This document shows, piece after piece, positions 19,064 to 29,337 of a DNA stretch of 64,000 nucleotides. The stretch spans positions 62,001 through 126,000 of IMG/VR virus record IMGVR_UViG_3300023174_000047, one strand, 5' to 3'. This stretch comes from a virus. Numbering within the stretch: position 1 is the first letter of the stretch; the number at the start of each line of letters is the position of its first letter. The position numbers and the translations under genes are program-made. The notes below the pieces were generated by a model, which saw only the letters and a program-made list of their open reading frames with translations, ran no database searches and was not told the DNA's origin.

Positions 19064-19546
19064 ATGTCAGTGCAAGTAAAAAAACCAACAACCAAGTTCA
19101 GCAAAGAACAATTTTACGTTAATCCTGAAGTGTTTAAGCAGCAAATCATAGAGTTTTACAAAACAGAATTTTGTGTTGCTGAATTAGGAGATAATTTAAA
19201 TAAAATTGCTCATGGGCTAAGCTTTTCACCCAGCTTCATCAATTATACATATAGAGATGAAATGATTGGAGATGCATTGGTAAAAATGTATGGTGCCCTC
19301 AAGCACAAAAAATACAATACTAATACAGAAACAAATCCGTTCTCGTATTTTACAACCATTGCTTTTCATGCATTCATTAACCGCATTAAAAAGGAAAAAA
19401 AGCACCACGAAGCACTTGAACAATACAAAGCAAATGAATATGAGAAGTTGCTAACCACAGGCATGGTTCACGACGAAAAATATCATATATACACCAAGCC
19501 ATCTTCAGATGATTCAGACTACGAACAAGATAGCGATTTTCAGTGA
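19064..19546 (+). CDS. 55: Late sigma factor gp55
   Basis: 160 residues, against 185 in T4 gp55. It has the sigma-like region RDEMIGDALVKMYGALKHKK and NPFSYFTTIAFHAFINRIKK, the latter recalling sigma region 2 (FxxYxTxxAxxxFINxIKK) that reads the TATAAATA late promoter. It directs host RNA polymerase to late promoters together with gp45. Many such octamers are present in the window. The C-terminus is acidic. It overlaps the gp47 gene by 38 bases, so the two should be co-translated. Confidence 0.85.
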   Translation: MSVQVKKPTTKFSKEQFYVNPEVFKQQIIEFYKTEFCVAELGDNLNKIAHGLSFSPSFINYTYRDEMIGDALVKMYGALKHKKYNTNTETNPFSYFTTIAFHAFINRIKKEKKHHEALEQYKANEYEKLLTTGMVHDEKYHIYTKPSSDDSDYEQDSDFQ

Positions 19547-23621: not shown

Positions 23622-25118
23622 ATGATTGGCTATAGAAATGCAGTTTATATTCCACAAGAAGAGTGTGTGCGGGTGTATTCATGGGATGAAAATGGTGAGC
23701 GTGTATCTTATGATTCACATTATACTCCCTACGTAATGATTGAAGATGCTAACGGAAAAGATATTAGCATCTTCAATACCAAGCTACGCACGCGTAAATT
23801 TAAATCACAGTTTGATCGCAATAAATTTATTAAAGACTGTGGCACCAAGAGGCTATTTGAAAACCTCAATCCTGTTCAACAGTTTCTTGTTGATGCATTT
23901 TGGAAACATAATAACGATAGCGATTTTGGAAAATTTCCTGTGCGTGTTGCATTCATAGACATTGAAGTATTTTCACCACTTTCGTTTCCCACAGCAGAAC
24001 AAGCAGGACATCCCATCAACATAATTACAATTCATGATTCATTAACGAATAAACTTTATTCATGGGGCACTAAAGAATATAAGCACAACAGAGATGATTT
24101 AGTGTATAATTTTTGTAAAACAGAAAGACAGCTGCTACTCGAGTTTCTTGAGTTTTTTGAAACAATGCAAGCAGATTTACTGACAGGATGGAACAGTGCT
24201 GGCTTTGACGTTCCATACATCATCAATAGAATTAACAACACCATTGGTGAAGAGCATTCACAACGACTGTCTCCTGTGCGAAGAGTTTATAACAGAGTTC
24301 TCAACTCTGGTATGTTTGGTAGACAGCAGATAAGATGGTACATTGACGGACTATCCTGTGTAGATTACATTGATATTTACAAGCGATTTAGCTTTGTGAA
24401 TAGAGAGAGTTATAAGCTGGATCACATTGCTGAACTGGAGTTAGGTGAGAAAAAGATTGATTATGGCAATACAAATCTTGCTAGTCTTTCAATTGAAGAT
24501 TGGCAGTTGTTTGTTGACTACAACTTACAAGACGTAATGCTTCTTGTTAAAATGGATTTGAAACTGCAGTACATTGCTTTGCTTCGAATGCTTGCATACA
24601 TGGGACTAACCACCATAGAGAATGCAATGAGTACGCTATCAACAATCTCCGGTACAGCTGCTATTAGAGCTCGTCAAAAAGGTAAATATCTACCAACGTT
24701 TATTCGCGGAGATGATGATAGTAAAAATCCTGGAGCTTTTGTTGCAGAGCCGCTTGAGGGATTTCAGGCTAGTGTTGTTTCGTTTGATGCTAACTCTCTA
24801 TATCCTAATATTATGATTAGCCTCAATATGTCACCGGAAACAAAAGTAGGCCGAATCATAGAGAGTGAAGATAGTGACATTACAATTCAGCACATTAATG
24901 GATCAATACATAAGCTTGATGCAGTTAAGTTTGCTAAATTTGTTAAAGATGAAAAAATTGCAATATCAAAAGCCAAAGTGCTTTTCAGCCAAAAGAGCAA
25001 AGGTATTCTACCTGAGATCGTTGACGAATACTACAATGAGCGTGTAGCTGTTCGAAAAGAGATGATGAATCTTAAGAAGGAGTTAAGTCGAATAGAGGAG
25101 CAATTAAAGAATACTTAA
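23622..25118 (+). CDS. 43A: DNA polymerase gp43, fragment A (exonuclease and motif A)
   Basis: 498 residues, the N-terminal part of a family B polymerase. VAFIDIEVFSPLSF (near residue 110) is Exo I with the catalytic D-x-E, LLTGWNSAGFDVPYI is Exo II, VDYNLQDVMLL is Exo III, and SFDANSLYPNIMISLN (near residue 387) is polymerase motif A with the first catalytic Asp. It stops after RIEEQLKNT in the finger helices, before motif B. The next polymerase piece starts 927 bases later, beyond an antisense endonuclease gene. A functional enzyme would need fragments A and B/C to assemble. Confidence 0.92.
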   Translation: MIGYRNAVYIPQEECVRVYSWDENGERVSYDSHYTPYVMIEDANGKDISIFNTKLRTRKFKSQFDRNKFIKDCGTKRLFENLNPVQQFLVDAFWKHNNDSDFGKFPVRVAFIDIEVFSPLSFPTAEQAGHPINIITIHDSLTNKLYSWGTKEYKHNRDDLVYNFCKTERQLLLEFLEFFETMQADLLTGWNSAGFDVPYIINRINNTIGEEHSQRLSPVRRVYNRVLNSGMFGRQQIRWYIDGLSCVDYIDIYKRFSFVNRESYKLDHIAELELGEKKIDYGNTNLASLSIEDWQLFVDYNLQDVMLLVKMDLKLQYIALLRMLAYMGLTTIENAMSTLSTISGTAAIRARQKGKYLPTFIRGDDDSKNPGAFVAEPLEGFQASVVSFDANSLYPNIMISLNMSPETKVGRIIESEDSDITIQHINGSIHKLDAVKFAKFVKDEKIAISKAKVLFSQKSKGILPEIVDEYYNERVAVRKEMMNLKKELSRIEEQLKNT

Positions 25119-25985
25119 AATGTTTTGATATTCTTGCAGTGTAGGTTTGCGCTTTTCAGCACCTCGTATAATAATTTGTTTTTTTACTTTACGCATATTT
25201 ATAGGTGATGTAAAGTCGTTAGATCTTATTCTATCCATAATACCATCTCTTGAAAATCCATTACCTATAGTCCATTCAATTAAAAATTTTGACTGTTCAC
25301 TACCTAGCAGGCAGTCATATATTTTGACAAAATATTGCGGTTTTTTATATGAAGCCTTTGAACATTTTGATTGTGTTAATAATAATTGCTCACTAGAACG
25401 GTTATAGTATGTTTTACACCAAGCATTATAACGTTTATTTTCTTTATTTTGTTTCGCTTCAGGTGATAAATTGTCCCAATATTGTCGAAATTTAGCTTTT
25501 TTAATATACTCACCTTCAACTGTTCTGCCGTGCTTGCTTTTCACACCATGTTTTTTTCGTTGCTCTTGCGTCATATTTGCAAAATATGCTGATAACGTAT
25601 CACTTCTTTTTTGTCTTTGCTCATCTGACAGTTTTATTCCTAATACACCGCCACCGCCATCACAAAAATTATATAGTGGTCCCTGATTTAAATCAGCGCG
25701 CCCAATCAAATTAATTAGCATCATTTCTAATTTAACTGATTCTTCAAATGTTAAATTTTCATATAATGTTAGTATTACAGGTTCTAATTGTTGTTGCTTT
25801 AATTTATTAATTAAGTGAGATAAATGTATATTTGAAGATTTTTTTAAATGTGTATATTTGCGCTTGTGCTGTACACATCCTCTCCCTATATAAACAGGCT
25901 TAAAGTCGAAAGATACATCTCCGTATATAAAATTATCTGAACAGCGTGGATCTAAATATGCATAAACCTCAAATGTTTTGACCAT
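25104..25985 (-). CDS. GIY-YIG homing endonuclease, antisense, inserted in the polymerase gene
   Basis: 293 residues. The catalytic domain shows VYAYLDPR (GIY variant), FKPVYIGRGCVQHKRKYTHL (YIG and Arg) and LTFEESVKLEMMLINLIGR (catalytic Glu). Downstream LSDEQRQKRSDTLSAYF and MTQEQRKKHGVKSKHGR are NUMOD3-like DNA-binding repeats, and the C-terminus (TIGNGFSRDGIMDRIRSND) suggests a further helix-turn-helix. It lies between polymerase fragments A and B on the opposite strand and overlaps fragment A by 15 bases. A late promoter precedes it, so it is expressed separately as a free-standing homing gene. Confidence 0.85.
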   Translation of the reverse strand: MVKTFEVYAYLDPRCSDNFIYGDVSFDFKPVYIGRGCVQHKRKYTHLKKSSNIHLSHLINKLKQQQLEPVILTLYENLTFEESVKLEMMLINLIGRADLNQGPLYNFCDGGGGVLGIKLSDEQRQKRSDTLSAYFANMTQEQRKKHGVKSKHGRTVEGEYIKKAKFRQYWDNLSPEAKQNKENKRYNAWCKTYYNRSSEQLLLTQSKCSKASYKKPQYFVKIYDCLLGSEQSKFLIEWTIGNGFSRDGIMDRIRSNDFTSPINMRKVKKQIIIRGAEKRKPTLQEYQNILSIL

Positions 25986-25991
25986 ATACTC

Positions 25992-25999
25992 TATTTATG
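25992..25999 (-). promoter_or_regulatory. Late promoter CATAAATA of the GIY-YIG endonuclease
   Basis: Minus-strand late octamer ending six bases before ATG 25985. Confidence 0.6.
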
Positions 26000-26030
26000 G
26001 TTAAAGGGTTGATAAACCAAATGCATTCAC

Positions 26031-26036
26031 TATATT
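26031..26036 (+). promoter_or_regulatory. -10-like hexamer of polymerase fragment B
   Basis: TATATT nine bases before ATG 26046. A promoter here would let fragment B be transcribed independently of fragment A across the antisense endonuclease gene. Confidence 0.4.
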
Positions 26037-26045
26037 GTATTATCT

Positions 26046-26157
26046 ATGAAAGATAATAAACAACTATTAGAACGAGCTAATTATTTGCGCGATAAAATAG
26101 CGCAATTAAATGCAAAACAATTGTGTATAAAAATTTTTATTAATTCCGTGTACGGGT
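26046..26157 (+). CDS. 43B: DNA polymerase gp43, fragment B, exon 1 (motif B)
   Basis: Translated by hand from ATG 26046: 37 codons plus one base. The sequence LLERANYLRDKIAQLNAKQL continues the finger helices, and CIKIFINSVYG is polymerase motif B (K...NSxYG). Without splicing the frame reaches a TAG after seven more codons. Joining T26157 to A26399 restores the frame as G-Y-M-G-N-K. It is too short to be seen as a gene on its own. The exon ends in GGGT, which pairs with GCCC inside the intron (P1), which fixes the 5' splice site. Confidence 0.85.
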
Positions 26158-26398
26158 TAGCCTTTAGCCCCTTGCTTTAGTGGCAAGAAAATGCCTCTAA
26201 TTGCTGGGAAGTCTCAATGAGATAATCAGCAGCGAAGCGCTAATAATAGCGAACGTTCAACGACTACTGCACAGCAGGTAGGTATAAGCATACCGAAACG
26301 GGGCACACAATTTGTGATGATATAGTCTCATCTATACAGCGATGTATAGCAGCTCAAAAGAGCGCAACAAACGTAGCGATTTTGTTGGAAGAAAAATG
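26158..26398 (+). other. Group I self-splicing intron in polymerase motif B
   Basis: 241 bases, no reading frame. Exon GGGT and intron AGCCCC form P1 with the required U.G pair at the splice site. The P and Q elements appear as AATTGCTGGG and AATCAGCAGC, with a P5 GTCTC/GAGAT between them. The R and S elements appear as CGTTCAACGACTACT and GATATAGTCTC, pairing GACTA with TAGTC as P7. CTATAC/GTATAG forms a P9-like hairpin. The intron ends in G26398. Splicing yields an in-frame NSVYG-Y-MGNKNAPLG. Confidence 0.85.
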
Positions 26399-26931
26399 AC
26401 ATGGGCAATAAAAATGCACCGCTAGGTGATGATGACATTGCATCCTCTATTACACTTACAGGGCAATTCATCAACAAATCTTCTCGATCACTTGCAAGGG
26501 AATATGTTGCTAATGTTTTAGGTCATGACAAGTTTGAAGACATTGCTGTTGCCGGGGATACAGACAGTGTGGTTGCAGATGCTGTTATACGCACATCCTG
26601 CGGCAATTTTACAATGGAAGAGTTATATGAATTATGTGAAGAAAGGGGCGGAACTACAAGTATTTCTAAAACCGGTCATGAGTTTCTAACCCCTTCATTT
26701 GACATTACAACCAATTGCGTCGATATGGATGACTGTACTATGCAGAATGCTAAGATTAGCAAGATAAGTAAAAGAAAGGTAAAGAAAGAGATATACAGAT
26801 TGAGAGCTGATAACGGCAAATACATTGATGTAACTAAAGATCATAGTTGTATTGTCATGAGGAACGGTAAACTTATAAGTGTCAAGCCTGTAGACATCAT
26901 TAAAACTGATATGCTGGTGATACAAAAATAA
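26399..26931 (+). CDS. 43B: DNA polymerase gp43, fragment B, exon 2 fused to the N-terminal half of a split intein
   Basis: After the intron the polymerase continues MGNKNAPLGDDDIASSITLT and ends at AGDTD (26565), half of motif C. From S at 26566 the sequence is an intein N-terminus of 121 residues: SVVADAVIRTSCGNFTMEEL is block A with Ser1 as the first residue, and IDVTKDHSCIVMRNGKLISV is block B with the T..H element. It stops at TAA 26929-26931. The intein C-half and the rest of the polymerase are encoded at 27947-28909, so protein trans-splicing is needed. Confidence 0.9.
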
Positions 26932-26944
26932 GTATCACCAGCAT
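26911..26944 (+). promoter_or_regulatory. Perfect 13-base-pair hairpin spanning the N-intein stop and the endonuclease promoter
   Basis: The arms 26911-26923 and 26932-26944 are exact complements around an eight-base loop that contains the TAA stop of fragment B. The right arm ends inside the late promoter CATAAATA (26942-26949). Read-through RNA would carry the hairpin just before the endonuclease start; RNA from the late promoter would not. Confidence 0.7.
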
Positions 26945-26949
26945 AAATA
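26942..26949 (+). promoter_or_regulatory. Late promoter CATAAATA of the intein-associated endonuclease
   Basis: Late octamer ending six bases before ATG 26956, overlapping the right arm of the 26911-26944 hairpin. Confidence 0.6.
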
Positions 26950-26955
26950 GTACAT

Positions 26956-27954
26956 ATGATAAAAAATAAAATTAATGAAAATGACGAAAATACATATGTC
27001 ACATGCAGAGTGTGTAATAAAAAGCTTGTCAGAGTAGACGGCAATCATATTGCAATGCATGGACTTAATACCGCTTCTTATGATGTTAGATTTAACACTA
27101 CAAAAGAAGATAGAATTGCAAAAACTATAATCAATAAATTAAAATTTACCAAAGATATATCTATTGAAAAATATGGCCTTGAAGAAGGAATGAAGCGATG
27201 GAACGAATATAGATTAAAACAATCCTTAAAAAATACATTTGAGTATAAGCATCATAAATATGGCTGGACAAGAGAGCAGTTTGACGAATATAACCGTGGA
27301 AGAGCTTGTACCCGTGATAATTTTATAAGAAGATACGGAGATGAAAAAGGTTGTGCAAAATGGGATGAATATATAAAATTACAAAAATATGTTGGATGTA
27401 GTATTGAATACTTTAAAGATAAACTCGGTGAAATAGAGGGGCAGCAGAGATATGATGCAGTGTGCAGGAGTAAAATAAACAATCTATATAACTATATTAA
27501 AAAATATGGTGAAGAAAAAGGCATAGATAGATACAAACATTATATTGAAAAGAAAGCTTCTAAATCCTTTCATTCAAAAATTTCACAAGATTTATTCTGG
27601 AAAATACACAACAATACAAATAATCAATATTTTGCTCAAAAAAATAAAGAATTCTGCATTTATGACAATGTAAAATGTCGACCGTTTTTTTATGACTTTG
27701 TAGATACGACTAGTAAAAAATGTGTTGAATTTAACGGTGATATATTTCACGCAAATCCGCTAATATATAAAGCCGAAGATACACCCAATTTTTATAATAA
27801 AAATATATCAGCATATGATATATGGGAACATGATAATTATAAAATTAAAATACTTGAGAGTCTTGGTTATAGTGTTATAATTATATGGGAATCAGAATAT
27901 ATTAATGATCCAGAGGGATGCGTGAGCCGGGCAAAAAAATTTATTTATGAATGA
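26956..27954 (+). CDS. Vsr-like (EDxHD-type) homing endonuclease between split-intein halves
   Basis: 332 residues. The N-terminus VTCRVCNKKLVRVDGNHIAM followed by HGL is a Cys2/His2 zinc-finger-like module. Then come at least three repeats of the type KYGLEEGMKRWNEY, RYGDEKGCAKWDEY, KYGEEKGIDRYKHY, probably DNA-binding. The C-terminal domain CVEFNGDIFHANPLIY, AYDIWEHDNYK and YSVIIIWESEY matches the Vsr/very-short-patch-like nuclease family described with fractured genes and split inteins. Its stop overlaps the start of the C-intein/polymerase gene (ATGAATGA), so the two are coupled. Confidence 0.85.
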   Translation: MIKNKINENDENTYVTCRVCNKKLVRVDGNHIAMHGLNTASYDVRFNTTKEDRIAKTIINKLKFTKDISIEKYGLEEGMKRWNEYRLKQSLKNTFEYKHHKYGWTREQFDEYNRGRACTRDNFIRRYGDEKGCAKWDEYIKLQKYVGCSIEYFKDKLGEIEGQQRYDAVCRSKINNLYNYIKKYGEEKGIDRYKHYIEKKASKSFHSKISQDLFWKIHNNTNNQYFAQKNKEFCIYDNVKCRPFFYDFVDTTSKKCVEFNGDIFHANPLIYKAEDTPNFYNKNISAYDIWEHDNYKIKILESLGYSVIIIWESEYINDPEGCVSRAKKFIYE

Positions 27955-28909
27955 TATAAAATTAGTGAATATTGATTCTATTGAGATTATCAATAGTGAT
28001 GAGCAATATGTTTATGATATAGAAATAGATAGAGATAATGCTCACAATTTTTTTGCTAACGATATTCTTGTACATAACAGTGTATATCTCTCCATTGCAC
28101 CACTCCTCAAGCATCACAACATACCGCTTCTTACAGATGGCAAAGTAACGCCACAGGTGTATGAAGTTATCGATAATCTCAATAATTATATCAATGAAAA
28201 AGTCAAGGAGCGGATGATTAATTCACTTAACTCTCTTGATCCTAGAATCTTTTTTAAGCGAGAGTCCATCATTGACAAAGGACTATTTTTACAAAAGAAG
28301 CGATACGTTGCGCATGTAGTAGATGATGAAGGCATTGTATGTGACAAGTGGAAGTATGTGGGTGTAGAAGTGGTACGAACTGCAATGCCTAAAGCAATTA
28401 AACCATATGTCAAAAAAATTATTGAGACAATGATTGGTGTACAGAATCGTGCTGATACAAACAAGGTCCTCAATGAGGCATATGAGGTGCTGAAATCACT
28501 GAAGCCAGAGGAAATTGCATATGTCATGGGCATGAAAGATTATGATAAGCATGCAAATAATTGCAAAGATTTTACAACTGCAAAAGGCATGCCAGTGCAT
28601 GTTAAATCTGCATACTTCTACAATACATTGCTCAAAAAGCTTGATTTAGAGACCAAATATGAAAAGTTACAATCTGGAGATAAGCTACGCTGGATGTATA
28701 TCAAGACACCGAACAAATACAACATTAAAACCATTGCATTCAAATACTATTATCCAGCCGAATTTAGTGCATTATTCCAGCCTGATTATGAAACAATGTT
28801 TGAGAAAATTATCTTTAGTGTAGTAGAGAGATTTTATGCTGCTGTTAAGTGGCCATCACACAAACCAAACGAGCAGACAACAGTCGATTTATTTGACTTA
28901 TTTGGTTGA
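27947..28909 (+). CDS. 43C: C-terminal half of the split intein fused to DNA polymerase gp43, fragment C
   Basis: 320 residues. The first 44 are the intein C-half: EQYVYDIEIDRDNAHNFFAN is block F and DILVHN is block G, ending in the His-Asn pair at 28078. The C-extein begins with S at 28079 (SVYLSIAPLL), which restores GDTDSVYLS, polymerase motif C. FLQKKRYVAHVVDDEG is the KKRY motif, and the remainder is the thumb domain, ending LFDLFG like the clamp-binding tail of T4 gp43. Exteins A, B and C total about 867 residues. Confidence 0.92.
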   Translation: MNDIKLVNIDSIEIINSDEQYVYDIEIDRDNAHNFFANDILVHNSVYLSIAPLLKHHNIPLLTDGKVTPQVYEVIDNLNNYINEKVKERMINSLNSLDPRIFFKRESIIDKGLFLQKKRYVAHVVDDEGIVCDKWKYVGVEVVRTAMPKAIKPYVKKIIETMIGVQNRADTNKVLNEAYEVLKSLKPEEIAYVMGMKDYDKHANNCKDFTTAKGMPVHVKSAYFYNTLLKKLDLETKYEKLQSGDKLRWMYIKTPNKYNIKTIAFKYYYPAEFSALFQPDYETMFEKIIFSVVERFYAAVKWPSHKPNEQTTVDLFDLFG

Positions 28910-29289: not shown

Positions 29290-29310
29290 TACTTAATAAT
29301 TAATAAAATT

Positions 29311-29337
29311 GAGCCACCAGAAATGGTGGCTCTTTTT
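29311..29337 (+). terminator. Strong intrinsic terminator between gp43 unit and uvsX
   Basis: A perfect nine-base-pair GC-rich stem (29311-29319 with 29324-29332) with a GAAA tetraloop is followed by TTTTT. Confidence 0.92.

What the first reader, a model, noticed from the sequence alone, without database searches (positions are those of the whole stretch)
23622..28909. One DNA polymerase gene broken by three different kinds of mobile element
The family B polymerase motifs are distributed over three genes. Motif A is in fragment A (23622-25118), motif B in fragment B exon 1 (26046-26157), and motif C (GDTD/S) is split between fragment B exon 2 and fragment C. Between the fragments lie an antisense GIY-YIG endonuclease gene, a group I intron, and a split intein with its own endonuclease gene. 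Each conserved polymerase motif borders a different element. Summed exteins are about 867 residues, so nothing essential seems lost. The enzyme needs RNA splicing, protein trans-splicing and non-covalent assembly of the A part with the B-C part. I know of single cases of each event in phage polymerase genes, but not of all three together.
Basis: partly seen in the sequence, partly recalled or inferred. Interest (0 to 1): 0.95.

Follow-up and report, generated by a model that had tools for sequence, protein, structure and literature searches.

The report
Phage polymerase gene in three pieces
A large phage makes its DNA polymerase from a gene broken up by a free-standing endonuclease gene, a self-splicing intron and a split intein; the arrangement is real and probably functional, but the same three-element layout is already annotated in Aeromonas phage Aes508, so this is a second, apparently partly independent, case.

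Summary
A family B (gp43-type) polymerase is encoded as fragment A (498 aa), fragment B in two exons around a 241-nt group I intron, and fragment C. B and C carry the halves of a Ser1 split intein inserted at GDTD|S, with a VSR-like endonuclease gene between them. An antisense GIY-YIG-type gene separates A from B. A relative (L003) has the uninterrupted 849-aa gene, giving the empty site for every break. The contig holds no second polymerase, synteny argues against a chimera, and the pieces are under purifying selection. The claim 'not all three together' fails: GenBank annotates gp43A | Seg-like GIY-YIG | 43B-1 with group I intron and N-intein | VSR | C-intein 43B-2 in Aeromonas phage Aes508. 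What is new is a second, distant lineage: VSR and intein are homologous to those of Aes508, but the GIY-YIG gene is unrelated over its catalytic part and lies on the other strand, and the intron sits about one codon away. The window's clade shows intermediate states. Likely mechanism: self-splicing, protein trans-splicing, then non-covalent assembly of A with B-C; none of this was measured here.

The parts
23622..25118 (+). PolB fragment A (gp43A-like): N-terminal, exonuclease, motif A (DANSLYP) and first finger helix; 498 aa, ends in a 12-aa tail not present in the uninterrupted relative
   Evidence: PHROG_262 E 6e-119, Pfam exo1 and PolB; 82% identical to L003 residues 1-486
25104..25985 (-). 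Antisense free-standing GIY-YIG-type (LEM-3/Seg-like, NUMOD3-like region) homing endonuclease gene, 293 aa
   Evidence: 59% identical gene at the same site in L070; Mater protein annotated GIY-YIG superfamily and a Rhizobium phage Seg-like protein are relatives; Pfam match weak
25992..25999 (-). CATAAATA, T4-type late-promoter-like motif 6 nt before the GIY-YIG start
   Evidence: conserved before the GIY gene in L070
26046..26157 (+). Fragment B exon 1: second finger helix and motif B (KIFINSVYG), start at ATG 26046
   Evidence: aligns to L003 residues about 488-518
26158..26398 (+). HEG-less group I intron, 241 nt; P1 with U.G at the 5' splice site; intron ends in G
   Evidence: RF00028 84.9 bits; 83% identical intron at the same site in L070, also in L077; compensatory changes in a 3' hairpin
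26399..26565 (+). Fragment B exon 2: extein from motif B to GDTD of motif C
   Evidence: 87% identical to L003
26566..26931 (+). Intein N-half, Ser1, 121 aa, with block B TKDH (stop codon included)
   Evidence: Pfam Intein_splicing E 6e-9; PDB 9hth E 4e-9 over nearly its whole length
26942..26949 (+). CATAAATA, late-promoter-like motif 6 nt before the VSR-like gene
26956..27954 (+). Free-standing VSR-like endonuclease of the 'fractured gene' type, 332 aa
   Evidence: 39% identical to the VSR protein of Aes508; phrog_22677 E 9e-66; also in PTm1 and Campylobacter phages
27947..28078 (+). Intein C-half, 44 aa, ending VHN|S
   Evidence: Pfam Intein_splicing positions 116-155 of 155; 17/23 identical to the Aes508 C-intein end
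28079..28909 (+). PolB fragment C extein: SVYLS of motif C to the C-terminus, 276 aa
   Evidence: phrog_262 E 6e-46; 84% identical to L003

Best explanation
This is the single replicative gp43-type DNA polymerase of a large T4-like phage, invaded at three places by homing elements and still functional. A is translated on its own. The B transcript loses a 241-nt group I intron by self-splicing and is translated as B-IntN. IntC-C is translated after the VSR-like gene, with which it overlaps. The intein halves associate and trans-splice B to C (369 aa), closing motif C as GDTDSVYLS. The B-C product then pairs with A through the two antiparallel finger helices whose connecting loop is the break, giving an 867-residue enzyme in two chains. 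The GIY-YIG and VSR-like genes are late-expressed, free-standing endonucleases; the first probably also mobilises the endonuclease-less intron (collaborative homing), the second the split intein. Shown by sequence: anatomy, junctions, empty sites, intact intron core and intein residues, purifying selection, relatives. Inferred: splicing, assembly, activity, late expression, homing.
For: Uninterrupted relative. Exact junctions and intron match. Intein N-half matches PDB 9hth nearly end to end; Ser1, TxxH, HN and Ser+1 are present; related PolB split inteins trans-splice in vitro (PMC11923092 and PMC12707363). Only one polymerase in the contig. dN/dS 0.034-0.070 for the pieces between L070 and L077, two relatives that keep the fracture and intron. 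In L077/L079 the GIY gene is a remnant yet A and B stay separate open genes. Break in the loop between the finger helices. Split gp43 of phage 25 is active and its parts co-purify (PMC2988022). Late-promoter-like motifs before both endonuclease genes.
Against: No RNA, protein or activity data. The GIY-YIG assignment is weak by profile, and its AlphaFold model was unusable (pLDDT 42). dS between the window and L003 or L070 is near saturation. The window's closest relative by extein (L003) lacks the intron and GIY gene while the more distant L070/L077 have them, so gain, loss or transfer is unresolved.
Confidence: 0.87

Rival explanations
1. The gene is a decaying pseudogene, and the phage replicates with another polymerase.
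For: Three interruptions in one essential gene; the contig is classed linear and may be incomplete.
Against: All frames are open, the catalytic motifs are intact, dN/dS is low, the intron and intein keep their active sequences, no second polymerase is found, and the layout recurs in isolated Aeromonas phages.
Confidence: 0.04
2. Assembly chimera or mis-assembly.
For: Metagenomic contig; reads could not be checked.
Against: Flanking genes (SbcC-like, glycosyltransferase, pol, 116-aa ORF) are collinear in L003, L070 and L077. L070, from another sample, has the same GIY gene and intron at the same sites.
Confidence: 0.02
3. A and B are also joined covalently, by an unrecognised trans-splicing or bypass event, rather than assembling non-covalently.
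For: The GIY gene could sit in an element not recognised by Rfam.
Against: No Rfam match at E up to 1 between A and B, no intein sequence at either end, both ends have their own start or stop, and in L077 the gap has shrunk without any joining. The phage 25 precedent is non-covalent (PMC2988022).
Confidence: 0.05
4. The whole three-element arrangement was inherited from a common ancestor with the Aes508 lineage, not assembled separately (a rival on origin, not on mechanism).
For: Same order, same fracture interval and intein site; VSR and intein homologous.
Against: The GIY proteins share only a short repeat, not the catalytic domain, and lie on opposite strands; intron sites differ by about one codon and the intron sequences differ; the window's nearest relatives lack one or all elements.
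Confidence: 0.2

Closest known systems
Aeromonas phage Aes508 gene 43 (JN377894: gp43A, Seg-like GIY-YIG, 43B-1, VSR, 43B-2)
   Same: Same three elements in the same order; same fracture interval in the fingers; intein at the same D|S site with a homologous split intein and VSR gene
   Different: Its GIY-YIG gene is on the sense strand and shares only a 24-aa repeat with the window's; its intron sits about one codon further on; polymerase only about 30% identical
Aeromonas phage 25 43A/43B with Seg-type HEG and HEG-less group IA2 intron
   Same: Fracture by a free-standing HEG plus an intron without its own HEG; co-purification and activity of the parts reported (PMC2988022, PMC2993671)
   Different: No split intein
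Tenacibaculum phage PTm1/PTm5 polymerase
   Same: Separate fragment A, then B-IntN, VSR, IntC-C
   Different: Two other ORFs between A and B; no group I intron found
Aes123, CP21 and LCGC14 PolB cysteine-less split inteins
   Same: Ser1/Ser+1 split intein in a PolB gene; trans-splicing studied in vitro (PMC11923092, PMC12707363)
   Different: The Aes N-half is about one third identical to the one here, which has several non-catalytic cysteines
Relatives L070, L077/L079, L003 and L004 (IMG/VR)
   Same: Same gene neighbourhood and polymerase family; L070 has GIY gene plus intron, L077/L079 intron plus dead GIY
   Different: None has the intein; L003 is uninterrupted; L004 and L077/L079 have another endonuclease-type gene breaking the exonuclease domain

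Membership tests
T4-type gp43 family B DNA polymerase | Exonuclease domain plus motifs A, B and C | tested here: met
   PHROG_262, Pfam PF03104 and PF00136, phmmer of L003 to RB69-type gp43 E 2e-68
Group I intron | Conserved core, U.G in P1, intron ending in G | tested here: met
   RF00028 84.9 bits against gathering score 50; P1 GGGU/GCCC with U.G
Group I intron | Self-splicing in RNA | not testable with these tools
   needs RT-PCR
Split intein (class 1, Ser1) | Nucleophile Ser1, block B TxxH, block G HN, Ser+1, on two separate genes | tested here: met
Split intein (class 1, Ser1) | Trans-splicing activity | not testable with these tools
   homologues splice (PMC11923092, PMC12707363)
'Fractured gene' (Dassa 2009): split intein flanking a free-standing VSR-like endonuclease | VSR-like gene lying between the two intein halves | tested here: met
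GIY-YIG homing endonuclease | GIY-YIG catalytic domain | tested here: inconclusive
   VYAYLD...VYIGRG...E...N pattern and annotated relatives, but Pfam E 0.0085 below cut-off and no usable structure model
Collaborative homing pair (free-standing HEG plus HEG-less intron) | Endonuclease cuts the intron-less target at or near the intron site | not testable with these tools
   only co-occurrence shown: both present in window and L070, remnant plus intron in L077, neither in L003
Aes508-type three-element gene 43 | 43A | GIY-YIG | 43B with intron and N-intein | VSR | C-intein 43C, in that order | tested here: met
   the GIY-YIG gene is on the other strand

The most novel reading that the evidence does not exclude
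The same three-element fragmentation of a phage replicative polymerase arose at least twice: in the Aes508 lineage and separately in this distant large-phage lineage, by successive homing into nearly the same sites, with unrelated GIY-YIG genes and different introns but a shared mobile VSR/split-intein module. A once-broken gp43 would then be a stable platform for further elements.
Probability: 0.6. Interest if true: 0.55.

Novelty: new member of a known kind. Interest (0 to 1): 0.42.

Why it matters
It shows that an essential polymerase can carry three kinds of interruption at once in a second phage lineage. It also gives a set of states within one clade (uninterrupted, GIY plus intron, dead GIY plus intron, all three), so the build-up of such genes can be tested. 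The split intein is a further member of the Ser1 PolB class used in protein engineering.

Tried and rejected
Single-sequence searches of IMG/VR with the VSR protein and the N-intein found nothing; an alignment query then found eight VSR loci, none of the seven scanned with a group I intron. AlphaFold of the GIY protein failed (pLDDT 42). A look for a co-conversion footprint next to the intron was inconclusive: synonymous identity to L070 is somewhat higher near the intron, but dS is near saturation. No close DNA relative among cultured phages. The Dassa 2009 paper is not held in the library.

Full report
Observation. Fragment A matches family B polymerases over the exonuclease domain and motif A. 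B exon 1 carries KIFINSVYG (motif B), exon 2 runs to GDTD, and fragment C starts with SVYLS. The only polymerase matches in the 203,774-base contig are these pieces.

Empty sites. The best relative, L003 (a 224.7-kb IMG/VR contig), has one open 849-aa gene with 82-88% identity to each piece and the same neighbours. It shows that A/B is interrupted after ...MMNLKK, that the intron sits in the codon after VYG (T|AC), and that the intein sits between D and S. About 40 of the related loci checked have one uninterrupted ORF.

Intron. Positions 26158-26398, 241 nt, RF00028 84.9 bits. L070 has an 83%-identical intron at the same site, and L077 a near-copy of that. P1 pairs the exon end GGGU with GCCC through the U.G pair, and a 3' hairpin keeps its pairing through two-sided changes at six of eight pairs. 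No ORF lies inside it. Only one group I intron is found in the contig.

Intein. The N-half (121 aa, Ser1, TKDH) matches the solved structure 9hth, deposited as a DNA polymerase chain, over nearly its whole length; a structure of the Aes123 PolB1 intein was reported in PMC11923092. The C-half ends VHN|S. The same D|S site is used in Aes508, Aes123, Campylobacter F379, Pseudomonas phage 30-3 and LR756500. Related inteins trans-splice in vitro (PMC11923092, PMC12707363).

Endonuclease genes. The gene between the intein halves is 39% identical to the VSR protein of Aes508. In five further IMG/VR loci (PTm1 apart) the VSR gene lies in a polymerase locus, with N-intein matches in four of them and no group I intron in any. 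The antisense gene between A and B is GIY-YIG-like, by relatives rather than by a strong profile match. It shares only a short repeat with the Seg-like protein of Aes508. Both genes have CATAAATA 6 nt before the start codon.

A/B break. An AlphaFold model of the L003 polymerase (mean pLDDT 68.5) places the break in the five-residue loop between helices 462-486 and 492-520, the fingers. That is a plausible place for two chains to pack without a covalent link. The intron and intein sites are well conserved positions (86th and 93rd percentile); the A/B site is average.

Selection and history. Between L070 and L077, which both carry the fracture and the intron, dN/dS is 0.034 (A from residue 121), 0.066 (B1), 0.070 (B2) and 0.036 (C). 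In L077/L079 the GIY gene has lost most of its length, yet A and B remain separate open genes. L004 and L077/L079 carry another break in the exonuclease domain, after the DIE motif, with an endonuclease-like gene. By extein identity the window is closest to L003, which has none of the elements, so the order of gain and loss is not settled.

Comparison with the known. Aes508 is annotated with gp43A, a Seg-like GIY-YIG gene, 43B-1 including group I intron and N-intein, a VSR gene and 43B-2 with C-intein. Aes517 has a truncated GIY-YIG gene, Aes144 no GIY gene, and Aes509 and Aes123 neither GIY gene nor intron. Phage 25 has the fracture and intron. Reviews state that the phage 25 parts co-purify with polymerase activity and that its intron lacks its own HEG (PMC2988022, PMC2993671). 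PTm1 has the fracture and split intein. So the combination is not new at database level. A targeted search found no paper discussing the Aes508 combination, but most subscription journals are not held.

How independent is it? The VSR gene and the intein of the window and of Aes508 are homologous and use the same site, so that module is shared or exchanged. The two GIY-YIG genes differ in catalytic domain and strand, and the introns sit about one codon apart with different sequences. With the uninterrupted and partly interrupted relatives of the window, this favours separate assembly, though a formal intron tree was not made.

Verdict. A sound observation with a mostly right mechanism and an overstated novelty claim. 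The value lies in the second, distant lineage and in the intermediate states.

Noticed in passing
G000:C1:132628-137404 (L087 1129-5905), outside the window: The terminase large subunit gene of the same genome is also broken: a cis intein with LAGLIDADG domain near Walker A (SRQIGK|ALDVN...PTHN|TTLL), and a second intein split near its N-terminal end, with a 554-aa Vsr/Mom-like gene between the parts. The split resembles the AceL-TerL type (from memory).
   Followed up: partly
whole contig; in the window e.g. 25992, 26942, 55869, 62792; gp55-like gene at 19064-19546: [CT]ATAAATA ends 4-10 nt (mode 5) before the ATG of 22 of 170 ORFs of at least 150 aa (about 0.2 expected by a rough estimate), and no Shine-Dalgarno signal is seen (4 of 170, control 4.3%). 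A gp55-like late sigma factor is present (E 4e-24). With the T4 late-promoter geometry this suggests leaderless late mRNAs.
   Followed up: partly
L004 5267-8843; L077 2452-4960: A different break in the exonuclease domain, after the DIE motif, with a 268-270 aa endonuclease-like gene; the second fragment starts with a conserved extra ~45-aa leader (EYEVWDE) that looks like neither intein nor intron.
   Followed up: no
L077 4955-5260: GIY gene reduced to a C-terminal remnant by internal deletion, its start and late-promoter motif kept, while polymerase fragments A and B stay open.
   Followed up: partly
L074 4500-6182 (Pseudomonas phage 30-3): In this phage group the gene between the intein halves at the same D|S site is a longer one; in the related MIJ3 it is described as HNH (PMC6892783), suggesting exchange of the endonuclease in one split intein.
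   Followed up: no
window 29302-29337: Strong terminator-like hairpin followed by a T run after the 116-aa ORF downstream of the polymerase; seen as weak sRNA matches by Rfam.
   Followed up: no
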